Assembly: GCA_013331215.1 (NCBI GenBank)
Contig: DUGU01000310.1
Span: 3,878 to 14,632, forward strand
Direction: 5' to 3'
From: Methanoregulaceae archaeon
GTDB lineage: Archaea > Halobacteriota > Methanomicrobia > Methanomicrobiales > Methanospirillaceae
Length of the DNA stretch: 10,755 bases
How positions within the stretch are numbered: the stretch's first letter is position 1; every line of letters starts with the position of its first letter. Both the position numbers and the translations under genes were made by a program. Shown piece after piece: positions 127 to 7,340 of the stretch. The notes beneath the pieces were generated by a model that saw only the letters and a program-made list of their open reading frames with translations, did not search any database and was not told the origin of the DNA.

Positions 127-1014
127 ATGGACGCGATCGTATCCATCCCTGCCGGCGAGGCCCCGATCCAGTGGATCTCGCCCGCCTGGCTCGCCGACCA
201 CCACGCCGACGAGCTCCTGATCTTCGACTGCCAGCCGAACATCCACGAGTATATCAACGGCCATATCCCGGGTGCGGTCTACCTCAACGAGAACATCTTC
301 CGCGCCCACGAGGGGACCTACCCATCCCGCTGGATCAACCGGGAGGCGGCGATGTGGCTCCTCCGGCAGGTCGGCCTCCGGGCCGACGTCCCGGTGGTGG
401 TCTACACCGGGTCCGGAACCCTGACCGGTTGCACGTCCTATATCGGCGACGGGCTCGAGCAGACCATGGTCGCCTACTCGCTCCTCCGGTTCGGCCACGG
501 CGATGTCCGGATCCTCGACGGCGGGCTCGACGCCTGGCGGCAGGAGGGGCGCTCCGTGACGAGCGCGTATGGGACGGCGAATGAGTCCGAGTACGAGCCC
601 CGGGTCCGAAATACTCTCTTCATCGACTACGACGAGTTCCTCGATCTCAAGGACCGGGACGACGTGATCGTGCTCGACGCGCGTCCGGCGGCCACGTACC
701 AGGGTCAGGGGCCCTGGCCGAAGCCGGGCCACATCCCCGGCGCCGTCAACCTTCCCTGGAAGGGGCTGATGAGCGAGAAGAACACGCGCCAGCTCCGGTC
801 ACCTGCCGAGATCCGCGCTGCGGCCGAGGCCGTCGGCGCGACCCCAGAGAAGACAATCGTCTGCACGTGCGGCACCGGGCGCGAGGCCACGAACGAGTTT
901 CTGACCTTTCGCTATCTGCTGGGGTACCCGAAGGTCCGGCTTTTCGAGGGGTCGTTCACCGAGTGGTTGAACTACCCCGCAAATCCCACCCTGACCGGTC
1001 CGAACCCGCGGTAG
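127..1014 (+). CDS. Tandem-domain rhodanese-like thiosulfate sulfurtransferase (SseA type)
   Basis: This 295-residue protein has two rhodanese domains, the usual length for two-domain thiosulfate/3-mercaptopyruvate sulfurtransferases, which move a sulfane sulfur through a cysteine persulfide. The N-terminal domain (about 15-145) shows GHIPGA (45-50) and ends in ILDGGLDAW, but its loop position reads YTGSG without a cysteine, so it is probably structural. The C-terminal domain (about 160-285) has LDARP (183-187), GHIPGAVNLPW (201-211) and the active loop CGTGRE (248-253), with C248 the likely persulfide carrier. A second cysteine, C246, lies two residues before it. No signal peptide or membrane segment is visible, so it is cytoplasmic. 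GGAGG at 116-120, six bases before the ATG, fixes the start. It appears monocistronic, with the convergent flavoprotein gene downstream. Physiological donor and acceptor cannot be told; sulfide/thiosulfate handling or Fe-S and thio-cofactor supply are plausible. Confidence 0.93.
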   Translation: MDAIVSIPAGEAPIQWISPAWLADHHADELLIFDCQPNIHEYINGHIPGAVYLNENIFRAHEGTYPSRWINREAAMWLLRQVGLRADVPVVVYTGSGTLTGCTSYIGDGLEQTMVAYSLLRFGHGDVRILDGGLDAWRQEGRSVTSAYGTANESEYEPRVRNTLFIDYDEFLDLKDRDDVIVLDARPAATYQGQGPWPKPGHIPGAVNLPWKGLMSEKNTRQLRSPAEIRAAAEAVGATPEKTIVCTCGTGREATNEFLTFRYLLGYPKVRLFEGSFTEWLNYPANPTLTGPNPR

Positions 1015-1276: not shown

Positions 1277-2029
1277 CTAGCGCGCAGCGAGCTTGCCGAC
1301 GGTCGCGACGTAGATCGGGAACTGGTCGCTCCGGTCGGCCCCGATCGCCCGATCGAGCGCGTCGTCGTCGAAGGCCCCGATCGCACAGACGCCGCAGTCG
1401 ATCGGTTCGGCCGCAAGGTACAGGTTCTGGCAGACGTGGCCCGCGTCGAGGAAGAGGTAGCGGTACCCGCGCTCGCCGTACCGCCAGGTCATCCGGTACG
1501 GGACGGCCGTCCAGACGAAGACCGCGGCCGCCGTCTGCAGGAACGGCTGGCTGTAGCAGGCGGCACTCACCCGTCCGCCGACGGCGGGGTCCAGGTCGAC
1601 CTCGAGGAGCCGGTGGTCGATCGCGAGGTACCGGTAGAGCCCGGGCACCAGCCCCTCGACCCGGTTGACGAGCAGGTACGTCTCGAACGCGTGCCGCGCC
1701 CCCGCGCTCGGCACCGTCCGGAGCGTGTACTCTCCGCCGACGACGGCCCGCACTCCCTGGGTCGCAAAGAGCAGGAACGAGAGCTCGGCGAGCGCCAGGG
1801 GCTCGCTCGAGTACTCCCGGACCGACTCCCGCCGGACGATCGCCTCCCAGAGATCGAGGGCGGGCACGTCGAACCCGGCCGGATCCGGGAGCGCGTGCAC
1901 CGCCCCCCTATGAAGGGGGAGCTCGAGCAGGGGCTGGGGCAACCCGAGCATCTGGTCCGAGGGGGCCATGAACTCGGCCCGTGTCGTATCTAGGAACTGG
2001 CGTCCGCTTCCGTTTGACGTCGATACCAT
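1277..2029 (-). CDS. SagB/ThcOx-family nitroreductase-fold FMN oxidoreductase
   Basis: From this start the product has 250 residues. It shows the SagB/ThcOx hallmarks (numbered from the longer ATG at 2068): SDQMLGLPQP (37-46) ahead of the domain, the FMN-phosphate region RRESVREYS (79-87), PSAGARHAFETYL (120-132), DAGHVCQNLYLAA (208-220), GVCAIGAFDDDALD (226-239), and a C-terminal PIYVATVGKL. Family members bind FMN; the best known oxidise azolines in RiPP maturation, but many archaeal and bacterial copies stand alone with unknown substrates. No precursor peptide, cyclodehydratase (SagC/SagD) or transporter gene is next to it, so a RiPP role is not supported here. I chose the ATG at 2029 because homologous sequence begins a few residues later (GRQFLDTTRAEF...SDQ), a weak GAGG lies 11 bases upstream, and a TATA-like element overlaps the alternative ATG at 2068 (263 residues). 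No export signal is seen. Confidence 0.87.
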   Translation of the reverse strand: MVSTSNGSGRQFLDTTRAEFMAPSDQMLGLPQPLLELPLHRGAVHALPDPAGFDVPALDLWEAIVRRESVREYSSEPLALAELSFLLFATQGVRAVVGGEYTLRTVPSAGARHAFETYLLVNRVEGLVPGLYRYLAIDHRLLEVDLDPAVGGRVSAACYSQPFLQTAAAVFVWTAVPYRMTWRYGERGYRYLFLDAGHVCQNLYLAAEPIDCGVCAIGAFDDDALDRAIGADRSDQFPIYVATVGKLAAR

Positions 2030-2065
2030 CGTCCGCTTCGCCTCGACGAGTCTTATCGCGGACGG

Positions 2066-2077
2066 CATATTAAACGT
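2066..2077 (-). promoter_or_regulatory. Possible TATA element for the flavoprotein gene
   Basis: The minus strand reads ACGTTTAATATG here. If used as a TATA box, transcription would start near 2042-2047 and leave a short leader before the ATG at 2029. An alternative is the AATATAAAC reading on the minus strand at about 2105-2113, which would suit the ATG at 2068. Confidence 0.35.
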
Positions 2078-2099: not shown

Positions 2100-2113
2100 C
2101 AAACGTTTATATT
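2100..2113 (+). promoter_or_regulatory. BRE/TATA promoter of the ribosomal protein operon leader
   Basis: CAAACG directly followed by TTTATATT (2106-2113) matches the archaeal BRE plus TATA consensus and stands out against GC-rich surroundings. Using the usual spacing of about 25 bp, the start site falls near 2133-2138. That is about 400 bases before the L3 start codon and about 15 bases before the long helix beginning at 2150. It is the only strong TATA element I see between the flavoprotein gene and L3. Confidence 0.65.
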
Positions 2114-2149
2114 CCATTCTCTCTCATTATAACGACACCATTATGATCG

Positions 2150-2335
2150 GACGCGGTGTGAAAGCCCGCCCGCTCATGCGATGGCACGAATGCCGTGCAT
2201 CATGCACGGCGGCTGATAGACGCTGGGGCTGAAACAGCAGTCGGGTGGACGTCATGGACGGCCCGGCCCGTTTGACGGGCACTGCTGCGTTCAGGATCTC
2301 TTTCGAGAGACGGGTTGGGGCTGGCGCACCGCGTC
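2150..2335 (+). ncRNA. Candidate structured RNA / 5' leader domain I of the L3 operon
   Basis: No convincing gene exists between 2114 and 2532. The first half folds on paper into a nested RNA. A closing helix pairs GACGCGGTGTG (2150-2160) with CGCACCGCGTC (2325-2335): 11 bp, one G-U. Inside are three elements. The first is a rod hairpin, 2163-2170 with 2208-2214 (one bulged C), continuing through 2177-2187 with 2195-2206. The second is a three-way junction: CTGAA (2229-2233) with TTCAG (2290-2294), CAGCAGT (2235-2241) with ACTGCTG (2281-2287), then adjoining arms 2242-2246/2261-2265 (extended by 2250-2253/2257-2260) and GCCCG (2266-2270)/CGGGC (2276-2280), leaving no unpaired base at the junction. 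The third is TCTCT-TTCG-AGAGA (2297-2310). An exact 19-base inverted repeat (2192-2210) offers a competing hairpin. I do not recognise the family. Cis-acting leader or released RNA are both possible. Confidence 0.5.
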
Positions 2336-2339
2336 GGCA

Positions 2340-2503
2340 CGTGCTCTTCCATACCGGCTACGGAGTCTGCAGACGGGATGCTGCAGAACGGGGCCTGGCA
2401 TGCGGAGAGTCCGGACTGCAGCTCTCCACGAAGATCCGCGGCCTTCTTCAGTCGACGGCATTCTCCTGCCGAGTCAGCACGACTTCGCCGCCTCCCGTGC
2501 GGC
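2340..2503 (+). promoter_or_regulatory. Hairpin-rich leader domain II before L3
   Basis: The stretch between domain I and L3 has no gene but many local complementary pairs: TCTGCAG (2366-2372) with CTGCAGA (2381-2387), GGAGAG (2404-2409) with CTCTCC (2422-2427), GAAGA (2430-2434) with TCTTC (2445-2449), CGGCA (2456-2460) with TGCCG (2467-2471), and GCCGC (2487-2491) with GCGGC (2499-2503). CGTGCT (2340-2345) can pair with AGCACG (2476-2481) to enclose most of them. Short stems like these arise easily by chance in GC-rich DNA, so this part is weaker than domain I. No T tract follows, so it does not look like a terminator. Confidence 0.3.
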
Positions 2504-2532
2504 AACCACAACCAGAGAGGACTGATCGGACA

Positions 2533-3549
2533 ATGCCAAAAATCAACAGGCCGCGGCGGGGGTCGCTCGCGTACAGCCCGAGAAAGCGGGCAAAGAGCCA
2601 GGTCCCCCGCTACCATTCCTGGCCCGAGCGCGACGGGGAGCCGGTGCTCCAGGGCTTCGCCGGGTACAAGGTCGGCATGACCCACGTGGTCATGGTCGAC
2701 GACCACAAGCACAGCCCGACCGAGGGCAAGGACATCATGGTCCCGGTCACGGTCGTCGAGTGCCCGCCGATGAAGGTCGCGGCCATCCGCGCCTACACCA
2801 AGGACACCTACGGGAAGCGGGCCCTGACGGAGGTCTGGGCCGAGAAGGTCGACGACGAGCTCCGGCGGCGGCTCACGCTTCCGAAGACGTACGATGCCGA
2901 AGCAGCGTGGACCCGCCTCGACGAGGCGATCGCCGCGGACCTGGTCGTCGAACTCCAGGCCGTCGTGTACACGCAGCCGTACGAGCTGACCGGCGTTCCG
3001 AAGAAGGTCCCCGACCTCATGGAGATCTGCATCGGCGGCGGCTCGCTCGACGAGAAGGTCGCGTTTGCGAAGGAGACGCTCGGCACCGAGTTCAACTTCA
3101 CGGACTGCATGAATATCGGCGCCTACGCCGACGTGACCGCGATCACGACCGGAAAGGGGACCCAGGGCCCGGTCAAGCGCTGGGGCATCCAGGTTCGCAA
3201 GCGCAAGCACTCGCGCGGCGGTAAGAAGCGGCACATCGGCAACCTCGGCCCCTGGACCCCCCACCACGTCAGGTGGCAGGTCCCGCAGATGGGCCAGATG
3301 GGCTACCAGCAGCGGACCGACTTCAACAAAAGGGTCCTGAAGATCGGCGAGGACGGCGCGGAGATCACGCCCGATGGCGGTTTCATCAACTACGGCATCG
3401 TGCGAAATCCCTATATCCTCATCAAGGGCTCGATCCCGGGCCCGTCAAAGCGGCTCGTCCGGATCCGGCCGGCCGTGCGGAAGGGTGAACATGCCGAGCG
3501 GCTGCCCGCGATCGAGTACGTGAGCACCGTGTCGAAGCAGGGGTGCTAG
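2533..3549 (+). CDS. rpl3: 50S ribosomal protein L3 (uL3)
   Basis: This 338-residue protein is the expected length for archaeal uL3. It binds the 3' part of 23S rRNA and reaches toward the peptidyl-transferase centre. Landmarks are the N-terminal [14 protein letters not shown] (7-20), GYKVGMTHV (44-52), the basic [19 protein letters not shown] stretch, the conserved loop [17 protein letters not shown] (about 248-265) that approaches the catalytic centre, and [21 protein letters not shown] (about 284-304) near the C-terminus. The reading frame stays open back to 2245, but uL3 homology begins exactly at this ATG and the extension is low-complexity and protein-unlike, so 2533 is the start. GAGG at 2517-2520 is a rather distant ribosome site (12 bases). 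It is the first gene of the cluster, 3 bases before L4, so the structured leader lies directly in its 5' UTR. Confidence 0.98.
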
Positions 3550-3552
3550 AGG

Positions 3553-4302
3553 ATGAAGGCACAGATTAAAGGGCTCGACGGCGCCGTCCAGGGCGAGATC
3601 GATCTCCCGGCGGTCTTCGCCGAGGAGTATCGCCCGGACCTGATCCGGAAGGCCGTGATCGCGAGCCAGTCGACCCGGTACCAGCCCCACGGCACCTACG
3701 TGAACGCGGGCGTCGAGTCGGTCGGCACGGGCTGGGGCTCGGGCCGGGGCGCGTCGCACGTCCCCCGTCTCCACAACGGATCCCGTGCGGTCAAGGTCCC
3801 GCAGGCCCGGGGCGGGCGCGCAGCGCATCCGCCGAAGGTCGAGAAGATCCTGATCAAGGCGATCAACAAGAAGGAGAAGACCAAGGCGATCCGCTCGGCG
3901 ATCGCGGCCACCGTGAACGCCGAGCTCGTGCGCGGACGCGGCCACCTCTTCGAGGGGGACGTTCCGTTCGTGATGGACAACGCCTTCGAGGCAGTCACGA
4001 GGACCCAGGACCTCGTCCGGGCGCTCTCCGCGGTCGGCGTCTACGCCGACGTCGAGAAGGCCAAGGACAGCCACAAGGTCAGGGCCGGGCGCGGCAAGAT
4101 GCGCGGCCGGCGGTACAAGCAGAAGAAGTCGCTCCTGATCGTGACCGCGGACGAACCGCTCGCGGCCGCGCGGAACCTCGCCGGCGTCGACGCAGTCCCG
4201 GTGGGCGCGCTCAACGTCGAGCACCTTGCGCCCGGCACGCATGCGGGTCGGCTCACGGTCTGGACCGCCGGCGCGATCCAGCGGCTGGAGGACCGGTCAT
4301 GA
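3553..4302 (+). CDS. rpl4: 50S ribosomal protein L4 (uL4, L4/L1e family)
   Basis: This 249-residue protein is typical for archaeal uL4, which lines the nascent-peptide exit tunnel. The long conserved extended loop is visible at about 42-96, with GSGRGASHVPRLHNGS (62-77) followed by VKVPQARGGRAAHPPK (80-95); its tip contacts the tunnel constriction. The C-terminal half (about 130-249) carries the globular fold, with the GRGKMRGRRYKQKKSLL segment typical of the archaeal/eukaryotic form. It starts 3 bases after the L3 stop and its last bases overlap the L23 start codon (ATGA), implying coupled translation. In E. coli uL4 is the autoregulator of the S10 operon leader, which makes it a natural candidate ligand for the unexplained leader here; that link is inference only. 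Confidence 0.98.
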   Translation: MKAQIKGLDGAVQGEIDLPAVFAEEYRPDLIRKAVIASQSTRYQPHGTYVNAGVESVGTGWGSGRGASHVPRLHNGSRAVKVPQARGGRAAHPPKVEKILIKAINKKEKTKAIRSAIAATVNAELVRGRGHLFEGDVPFVMDNAFEAVTRTQDLVRALSAVGVYADVEKAKDSHKVRAGRGKMRGRRYKQKKSLLIVTADEPLAAARNLAGVDAVPVGALNVEHLAPGTHAGRLTVWTAGAIQRLEDRS

Positions 4303-6870: not shown

Positions 6871-7074
6871 ATGGCCATCTTCCGCTCCGGCGAGGTGGCG
6901 CAGCTCTCCGACGTGGAGATCGGCGAGCAACTGGACAAGCTCCGGTTCGAACTGGTCCGGCACAACGGTAAGGTCGCCGCCGGTGGCGCGACCGAAAACC
7001 CGGGCCAGATCCGGGAGCTCAGGCGAACCATCGCCCGCCTTCTGACCGAACAGACGCGGAGGAAGGCGGCGTGA
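6871..7074 (+). CDS. rpl29: 50S ribosomal protein L29 (uL29)
   Basis: This is a 67-residue, mostly helical protein of the tunnel-exit rim next to uL23. The helix AQLSDVEIGEQLDKLRFELV (10-29) includes the family LDKLRFEL segment. A short glycine-rich turn follows, and the second helix GQIRELRRTIARLLTEQ (45-61) has the conserved IRxLRRxIARLLT pattern. GGAGGTG at 6858-6864, within the S3 coding end, precedes the ATG, and there is no intergenic base. The stop TGA overlaps the GTG start of the next gene. Many euryarchaeal clusters place aIF1 (SUI1) after L29; here it is absent. Confidence 0.97.
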   Translation: MAIFRSGEVAQLSDVEIGEQLDKLRFELVRHNGKVAAGGATENPGQIRELRRTIARLLTEQTRRKAA

Positions 7075-7340
7075 TCGCGCCCCGGAACGTGCTCCGGCAC
7101 GAATGGATCGGCCGGCACGTCCGGGTGGCGCGAGCAACAAACCCGTCGCTTGAAGGAGTCGAGGGGCTCTGCGTCGACGAGACGCGGCAGACCCTCCGGA
7201 TCGCGACCGCGCGCGGTATCAAAACCGTGCCCAAGGCGGTCGCCGCGTTCCGGCTCCTGCTTCCCGACGGGACTGCGGTGGAGGTGAACGGCAGGGCACT
7301 CATCGGAGCGCCCGAACGCCGTCTCGCCGTCCGCAGATAA
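7071..7340 (+). CDS. rnp1: RNase P protein component 1 (Rpp29/Pop4 homologue)
   Basis: This 89-residue protein is the archaeal Rpp29 subunit, which binds the specificity domain of RNase P RNA with Rpp21 and aids 5' maturation of pre-tRNAs. It has the short Sm-like beta-barrel length of the family. The core reads SLEGVEGLCVDETRQTLRI (25-43), then GIKTVPKAVAAFRLLLPDG (49-67), matching the Rpp29 pattern of a glycine-rich turn, a DET-x-x-TL strand and a VPK strand. It starts with GTG, overlapping the L29 stop (GTGA); GGAGG at 7058-7062 lies eight bases before it. Its place between L29 and S17 is the standard archaeal one and couples tRNA processing to ribosome production. Confidence 0.95.
   Translation: MIAPRNVLRHEWIGRHVRVARATNPSLEGVEGLCVDETRQTLRIATARGIKTVPKAVAAFRLLLPDGTAVEVNGRALIGAPERRLAVRR

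What the first reader, a model, noticed from the sequence alone, without database searches (positions are those of the whole stretch)
2150..2335. Self-closing, multibranched RNA in the leader of the ribosomal protein operon
The region between the promoter and L3 is far longer than needed and has no gene. It can be threaded into a nested fold with an 11-bp closing helix joining segments about 165 bases apart. Inside are a rod hairpin, a three-way junction with zero unpaired junction bases, and a UUCG-loop hairpin. The nesting without conflict is the main argument, since isolated short stems would be weak. I match it to no RNA family I know. It could be a cis-regulator of ribosomal protein synthesis or an independent small RNA sharing the operon promoter.
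Basis: partly seen in the sequence, partly recalled or inferred. Interest (0 to 1): 0.75.

Follow-up and report, generated by a model that had tools for sequence, protein, structure and literature searches.

The report
Ribosomal-protein leader RNA, methyltransferase fossil
The stretch before the ribosomal protein L3 gene of this methane-producing archaeon holds a conserved regulatory RNA of a kind already listed as a probable ribosomal-protein switch; in related archaea the same letters also encode part of an enzyme, and here the enzyme gene is gone while the RNA has been kept.

Summary
The three-way junction (2229-2294) is a divergent relative of Rfam RF03135, a predicted L4 ribosomal leader (34.1 bits, cut-off 34.5). 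A model extended to the rod and UUCG hairpins matches the window (52 bits) and 190 of 232 genomes of the order (Methanomicrobiales), with strong covariation. The unexpected part: elsewhere in the phylum the element lies inside the PF02598 SPOUT methyltransferase gene upstream of L3 (38 of 38 matches examined), and synonymous change in the gene drops at the element in two non-overlapping gene sets. In the order the gene survives in 4 of 232 genomes while 186 have the RNA without it, often with broken methyltransferase codons still readable. So this looks like a dual-use regulatory RNA that outlived its host gene. Feedback by ribosomal protein L4 is likely but untested; predicted folds leave the L3 ribosome-binding site open, and no T-tract follows the element here.

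The parts
2106..2114 (+). TATA-box-like promoter element of the L3 operon; transcript start inferred near 2131-2140
   Evidence: Sequence read directly; the same in the 6 congeneric leaders but for one base in G003. Promoter reading is inference.
2142..2178 (+).
   Evidence: Forms in the segment fold of each of the 6 congeneric sequences, with sequence turnover inside
2191..2211 (+). rod hairpin (helix 1 of model R1)
   Evidence: 8-9 of 9 pairs in 6 congeneric sequences; 6 of its 7 model pairs show two-sided changes and 96.5% of cells pair in 71 distinct gene-less rows. In gene-bearing loci this helix is mostly gaps (4-16 of 38 rows have letters per pair).
2212..2228 (+). conserved linker between rod and junction
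   Evidence: Nearly invariant in the genus; related linker in many leaders of the order
2229..2294 (+). three-way junction core, RF03135 (L4-Archaeoglobi) match: P1a 2229-2233/2290-2294, P1b 2235-2241/2281-2287, P2 2242-2246 and 2250-2253/2257-2265, P3 2266-2271/2275-2280
   Evidence: cmscan 34.1 bits, E 6.5e-5; fold; covariation
2297..2310 (+). UUCG-loop hairpin (helix 7 of R1)
   Evidence: Arms pair in 6 of 6 congeneric sequences (4 of 5 pairs in the register counted), but it is in only 4 of 6 segment folds (not G005, G006). Weakest helix order-wide, 76.2% of cells paired.
   Evidence: Folds in all 6 congeneric segments
2339..2519 (+). conserved 3' part of the leader, function not worked out
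   Evidence: Genus alignment A2, mean column identity over the whole leader 87%
2520..2532 (+). ribosome-binding region of L3; predicted fairly open
   Evidence: RBS region more unpaired than the leader average in 28 of 30 leaders folded, window 0.53 against 0.35
2533..3549 (+). ribosomal protein L3 gene, first gene of the operon
   Evidence: PF00297 E 3.5e-96
3553..4302 (+). ribosomal protein L4 gene, presumed ligand
   Evidence: PF00573 E 5.4e-37

Best explanation
The leader holds a cis-acting ribosomal-protein leader RNA of the RF03135 type. It is a three-way junction flanked by a rod hairpin and a UUCG hairpin, which most likely lets free ribosomal protein L4 turn down its own L3-L4-L23-L2 operon. 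The RNA is old: in most of the phylum's other genomes that carry it, it is written inside the coding sequence of the SPOUT methyltransferase gene (PF02598) upstream of L3, so the same letters serve protein and RNA. In Methanomicrobiales the protein gene was lost, probably several times, and the RNA was retained as a non-coding leader. SHOWN by computation: conserved structure, covariation with and without the gene, synonymous constraint, absence of the gene, synteny in the loci fetched. INFERRED: that the RNA is a feedback switch, that L4 is the ligand, and the direction of control. UNRESOLVED: the read-out. The L3 start is 238 nt downstream and fairly open in predicted folds, and no T-tract follows, so I favour an effect on early elongation or mRNA stability.
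For: RF03135 match. Extended model R1 (157 positions, 34 pairs): window 52.0 bits, E 3.1e-12; 71 of 72 order sources; 190 of 232 genomes, 119 of 135 high-quality ones, 36 of 40 genera. Gene-less set: 92.5% of cells paired, 22 of 34 pairs with two-sided changes, covariation score 0.382 against 0.142 shuffled (0 of 500) and at most 0.085 when slid. Gene-bearing set: 90.5%, 16 of 34, 0.302 against 0.156 shuffled and at most 0.102 slid. Single-sequence folds made without alignment show CUGA/UCAG closure, the P2 arm and exactly two inner hairpins in 65 of 71 gene-less cores. Methyltransferase: ORFs over the element hit PF02598 at E 1.7e-51 to 3.4e-58 in 4 of 4 tested; 38 of 38 R1 matches lie wholly inside one open frame over 240 codons. 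In the phylum sample, outside the order, 179 genomes have both RF03135 and PF02598, 6 only PF02598, 1 only RF03135 (my comparison of the lists). Synonymous observed/expected ratio inside against outside the R1 block: 0.32/0.55 (n=30 genes) and 0.73/0.92 (n=31 genes); 0 of 20,000 random column sets, and 0 of 139 and 0 of 102 non-overlapping blocks, as low. Gene in 4 of 232 order genomes. The reading-frame phase between two codon anchors is one value in 4 of 4 intact genes and scattered over 71 gene-less leaders.
Against: The window itself scores 0.4 bits under RF03135's cut-off, and the order scan with RF03135 did not pick up G000. Two congeners, G001 and G006, gave no R1 match in the genome scan, though the G006 leader matches when searched directly (37.6 bits). 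Control genomes: Caulobacter also rang (E up to 1 allowed there). No primary-sequence similarity to 23S rRNA was found (best E 0.048), and the RF03135 authors flag no rRNA likeness for L4 and rate the motif borderline. No RBS occlusion and no T-run enrichment (5 of 69 leaders, 5 runs against 7.6 shuffled), so no mechanism of control is visible. The covariation alignments are fitted to the model, which leans towards the structure; control shuffles ignore relatedness. In gene-bearing loci the rod has few letters and the UUCG hairpin pairs in only 67.9% of cells. 3 of 41 gene-bearing loci gave no R1 match. Synonymous tests with other limits were weaker: the first haloarchaeal look with the RF03135 limits had 32 of 213 blocks as low, overlapping ones included, and the 12-codon minimum alone was reached by 155 of 5000 shuffles. 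In the window's own genus the codon phase still equals the intact one in 6 of 6 sequences. Only the 71 gene-less loci fetched, not all 186, were checked for L3.
Confidence: 0.72

Rival explanations
1. The leader is only a decaying methyltransferase pseudogene, and RF03135 is a coding-sequence artefact; the apparent structure is inherited codon conservation.
For: Outside the order RF03135 almost always goes with the PF02598 gene (179 of 180 genomes) and the matches I examined lie inside it; fossil codons are readable in many gene-less leaders.
Against: Gene-less leaders keep the structure in most genera (R1 in 36 of 40) with two-sided changes in 22 of 34 pairs, while frames are scattered. Intact genes show a synonymous trough there. 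Six genomes of the phylum sample and the Sulfolobus acidocaldarius control have PF02598 without RF03135, so the model does not simply ring on the gene.
Confidence: 0.05
2. It is a cis-regulatory leader, but the ligand is not L4: L3, another ribosomal protein, or a non-protein signal.
For: The ligand has been assigned only by analogy with earlier L4 leaders (PMC7247131); L3 is the first gene; no rRNA similarity found.
Against: By the RF03135 authors' rule, L4 is the one regulated protein already known as a leader ligand elsewhere.
Confidence: 0.3
3. An independent small RNA is released from the operon transcript by the closing helix.
For: The closed fold is very stable in this one species.
Against: Closing helix incomplete in 5 of 5 congeners; L3 follows in 69 of 71 gene-less loci fetched; inside a coding gene in other clades. 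No transcript data were available.
Confidence: 0.05
4. The 11-bp closure is a recent species-specific addition that does work in this organism.
For: 11/11 pairs, about 20 kcal/mol better than the modular fold in the window only; the closest relative G002 keeps 8 of 11.
Against: Not kept in the other four congeners; the two strands fit local hairpins there.
Confidence: 0.2
5. One ancestral loss of the methyltransferase and two later re-acquisitions, rather than repeated losses.
For: Gene bearers are few (4 of 232).
Against: Their ribosomal proteins fall inside families f2 and f3 (each family clade 100, bearer pairs 99-100) and the gene sits over the RNA at this locus in 4 of 4. Without regain at least 3 losses are needed after collapsing branches under 95, 7 on the best tree.
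Confidence: 0.2

Closest known systems
Rfam RF03135, L4-Archaeoglobi ribosomal protein leader (Eckert and Weinberg 2020, PMC7247131: abstract, sections 5, 7, 12 and searched passages seen)
   Same: Three-way junction closed by CUGA/UCAG, position before rplC-rplD; 34.1 bits in the window
   Different: Window core is shorter (66 nt against 85 model positions) and just below the cut-off; conserved rod and UUCG hairpins lie outside the 85 positions; published lineage is Archaeoglobi, whereas the model has a match in 230 of 392 genomes of the phylum sample. The text I saw does not mention the methyltransferase gene; the supplement was not readable.
E. coli S10 operon leader regulated by L4 (recalled)
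   Same: Presumed logic: L4 feeds back on the operon that encodes it
   Different: No sequence or structural membership tested; the E. coli mode of control (recalled) is not visible here
PF02598 Methyltrn_RNA_3, the COG2106 SPOUT methyltransferase (equation of the two recalled; COG2106 passages of PMC1829167)
   Same: Source of the nucleotides; broken peptide readable in many gene-less leaders
   Different: No PF02598 match in this genome or genus; the leader is non-coding
L7Ae k-turn leaders in archaea (PMC5539422, PMC6298567; search listing and abstract starts only)
   Same: Archaeal ribosomal-protein mRNA leader bound by its own product
   Different: Different protein; no k-turn shown here (not tested)

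Membership tests
RF03135 L4-Archaeoglobi | Covariance-model score at or above the gathering cut-off | tested here: inconclusive
   Window 34.1 against 34.5 bits, E 6.5e-5; relatives in the order up to 58.8 bits, 116 of 232 genomes over the cut-off
RF03135 L4-Archaeoglobi | Three-way junction closed by CUGA/UCAG with a GGGY/GCCC arm | tested here: met
   Window fold and Rfam alignment; 65 of 71 gene-less cores
RF03135 L4-Archaeoglobi | Upstream of the rplC-rplD operon | tested here: met
   L3 at 2533, L4 at 3553; L3 follows in 69 of 71 gene-less loci fetched
RF03135 L4-Archaeoglobi | Covariation supporting the helices | tested here: met
   gene-less; gene-bearing; model-fitted alignments
RF03135 L4-Archaeoglobi | Bound by L4 and represses the operon | not testable with these tools
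   Ligand assigned by analogy only
PF02598 methyltransferase gene | Open reading frame matching the profile | tested here: not met
   No match in G000 or its 6 congeners; codon-position test negative
Intrinsic-terminator attenuator | T-tract after the structure | tested here: not met
   Longest T run 3 in the window; 5 of 69 leaders have a run of 5 or more

The most novel reading that the evidence does not exclude
Across the phylum one stretch of DNA has been read in two ways, as the middle of a SPOUT RNA-methyltransferase gene and as the regulatory RNA of the ribosomal-protein operon downstream. When Methanomicrobiales lost the enzyme, repeatedly, selection on the RNA alone kept and then elaborated that piece of the dead gene into today's leader. 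The RNA, not the protein, was the more durable function of the gene.
Probability: 0.7. Interest if true: 0.75.

Novelty: new variant of a known kind. Interest (0 to 1): 0.62.

Why it matters
It gives strong support to a leader RNA that its discoverers rated borderline, nearly doubles the described element (85 to 157 model positions), and extends it to most of an order of methanogens. It also offers a clean natural experiment in overlapping functions: the same RNA with and without the protein gene it lived in, so RNA and protein constraint can be separated. It warns that an RNA family can look like a coding artefact, or a gene like an RNA, when both are true. Haloferax volcanii, where the RF03135 and PF02598 control searches both ring, is genetically tractable (recalled), so control through a coding sequence is directly testable.

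Tried and rejected
Closed 186-nt fold: rejected as conserved. Similarity of the leaders to 23S rRNA: short-word blastn against two congeneric 23S loci gave nothing beyond chance (best E 0.048). A look at the presumed L4 site (helices 18-20, located from memory) showed another small three-way junction with a GGGUGACAGUCCC hairpin, but such short likenesses are expected by chance and I claim nothing. RBS sequestration: not supported (30 leaders). T-tract attenuation: not supported. Coding read-through into L3: the frame is open from 2245 into L3 in 4 of 6 congeneric sequences and broken in 2, without codon-position signal. MAFFT plus RNAalifold on 53 diverse leaders recovered only the P2 arm (7 pairs), because loop lengths vary; I therefore built the model from 19 more alike leaders.

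L054 is a false RF03135 hit (no L3 found beside it, no R1 match) and was dropped; L011 and L018 lack a resolved L3 start and are not in the 69. A5 contains one stray 18-base second match of L059. Left out of the synonymous tests: L009, L135 and L157 (my frame extension failed), second copies of one genome, and surplus genes of the first set (30 used).

Full report
OBSERVATION. The interval folds far better than shuffled sequence (z -5.63, 0 of 200), and the rod, junction and UUCG hairpin are as described. The closing helix is another matter. I aligned the leaders of five congeners with the window and counted pairs: 11 of 11 in the window, then 8, 4, 6, 5 and 5 of 11. In each of the six sequences the two strands also fit local hairpins (2142-2178 and 2320-2338), and in the five congeners the modular fold is within 1.5-5.3 kcal/mol of the best fold; only the window gains about 20 kcal/mol from closure.

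IDENTITY. cmscan finds RF03135, L4-Archaeoglobi ribosomal protein leader, over 2229-2294: 34.1 bits, cut-off 34.5, E 6.5e-5. The family's source paper lists it for Archaeoglobi, regulated genes rplC, rplD, rplW, rplB, ligand L4 assigned by analogy with earlier leaders, covariation rating borderline, no asterisk for rRNA likeness (PMC7247131: abstract, sections 5, 7 and 12 read, other passages searched). Rfam 15 later lists three additional covarying pairs (PMC11701678, one passage). RF03135 has a match at E up to 1 in 137 of 232 genomes of the window's order, 116 over the cut-off (at least one match, L054, is false).

EXTENSION. The conserved element is larger than the Rfam model. From 19 leaders without the methyltransferase gene (A4; 19 of the 53 aligned, chosen because they align well) I built a 157-position model with rod, linker, junction and UUCG-type hairpin. 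It matches the window at 52.0 bits (E 3e-12) and 71 of 72 order sources; only L054 does not match. In the order scan it is found in 190 of 232 genomes, 119 of 135 good ones, 36 of 40 genera, now including the window's own genome and family f4; the congeners G001 and G006 gave no match in that scan. On 71 distinct rows 92.5% of cells pair, 22 of 34 pairs carry two-sided changes, and the covariation score is 0.382 against 0.142 for shuffles and at most 0.085 for slid partners. Those rows were fitted to the model, but single-sequence folds made without any alignment show CUGA/UCAG closure, the P2 arm and exactly two inner hairpins in 65 of 71 gene-less cores.

THE METHYLTRANSFERASE GENE. Four of four tested are PF02598, the SPOUT RNA methyltransferase of COG2106, at E 1.7e-51 to 3.4e-58. 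In the phylum sample, outside the order, 179 genomes have both RF03135 and PF02598, 6 only PF02598 (G253, G295, G323, G346, G352, G406), 1 only RF03135 (G239); this is my comparison of the lists. Among 41 gene-bearing loci searched, 38 match model R1, and 38 of 38 matches lie wholly inside one frame of over 240 codons, beginning at a median of 0.42 of its length. In these genes helices covary too (16 of 34 pairs, 0.302 against 0.156), though the rod has letters in only 4-16 of 38 rows per pair and the UUCG hairpin pairs in 67.9% of cells. Synonymous change is depressed over the block that the Methanomicrobiales model marks: 0.32 inside against 0.55 outside in 30 presumed haloarchaeal genes, 0.73 against 0.92 in 31 others; no random column set in 20,000 and no non-overlapping block (0 of 139, 0 of 102) is as low. 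Earlier looks with other limits were weaker for the first set: 32 of 213 blocks, overlapping ones included, were as low as the RF03135 block, and 155 of 5000 shuffles reached its 12-codon minimum, against 3 of 5000 in the second set. The Sulfolobus acidocaldarius control has PF02598 without RF03135, so the RNA model does not ring on every such gene.

LOSS OF THE GENE. PF02598 is in 4 of 232 genomes of the order (2 of 135 good ones), each time over the RF03135 match; the window's genome and its six congeners have none. All 4 also carry the R1 match, so 186 genomes have the RNA without a detected gene. Many gene-less leaders still read as broken methyltransferase, for example GSDRYAWVDV followed by a stop against GSDVSAWVDVGATSPVP in an intact gene, and the phase between two codon anchors, the same in 4 of 4 intact genes, is scattered over 71 gene-less leaders (phases 0, 1, 2: f1 16, 14, 9; f5 3, 0, 11; f6 2, 1, 5; f2 4, 1, 2; f3 1, 0, 2). 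In the window's genus the phase is still the intact one in 6 of 6, and the frame runs open into L3 in 4 of 6, but substitutions fall evenly on the three codon positions while L3 shows the usual excess at the third, so it is not coding. A tree of L3, L4, L23, L2 and S19 for 40 sequences places the gene bearers inside two families; without regain that needs 7 losses on the best topology, at least 3 after collapsing branches below 95 support. Re-acquisition is not excluded.

HOW IT MAY WORK. The position, the family and the covariation support a cis-acting feedback element. L4 as ligand is plausible by analogy only; I found no sequence likeness to 23S rRNA. The read-out is open: the element ends 238 nt before L3 in the window (median 271, range 215-417, n=69), the L3 ribosome-binding region is more open than the leader average in 28 of 30 leaders and shows no excess complementarity to the leader, and T-runs are not enriched (5 runs against 7.6 shuffled; longest run 3 in the window). 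I therefore favour an effect on elongation or mRNA stability, which would also suit an element sitting inside a translated gene, but this is inference.

NOVELTY. The core is known. What I did not find in print (paper searches; supplement of PMC7247131 not readable) is the extended element, its presence in most of Methanomicrobiales, its place inside the PF02598 gene elsewhere in the phylum, and its survival after the gene was lost. RF03135 scores highest on the presumed haloarchaeal loci, so its seed may already contain some; I could not see it.

Noticed in passing
window 2144-2152 and 2523-2531: The 9-mer TGATCGGAC occurs twice in the window, once as the 5' arm of the first leader hairpin and once in the L3 ribosome-binding region (4 of 200 shuffles have two or more). 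The 3' arm of that hairpin could in principle pair with either, a possible switch; the energy test showed no excess.
   Followed up: partly
window 2520-2532; many order leaders: The L3 start is preceded in many of the order loci by an AGGAYUGAU-type motif rather than a plain GGAGGUGAU Shine-Dalgarno.
   Followed up: no
window 2339-2519; L012, L030, L050, L056: A second block near the 3' end of the leader (GAUCGCGNGUUGGC ... UCUCGGAUU in several relatives) also looks conserved and seems to map on the C-terminal part of the methyltransferase (by eye); structure and role unknown.
   Followed up: no
L007-L010, L071-L078 and other leaders just after the element: A hairpin of the type CYGGUGCAYACCRG follows the element in many gene-less leaders and in intact genes (by eye).
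   Followed up: no
window 1277-2068 (-) and 127-1014 (+): Divergent neighbour is a nitroreductase-family protein (PF00881) and further out a rhodanese (PF00581).
   Followed up: partly
window 7071-7340 (+): RNase P protein p29 gene lies inside the ribosomal-protein operon (PF01868), a common archaeal arrangement (recalled).
   Followed up: no
RF03135 in Rfam: The family name says Archaeoglobi, but its best scores in the phylum sample are 74-78 bits in presumed haloarchaeal loci inside a protein-coding gene; the Rfam entry would profit from a note.
   Followed up: partly
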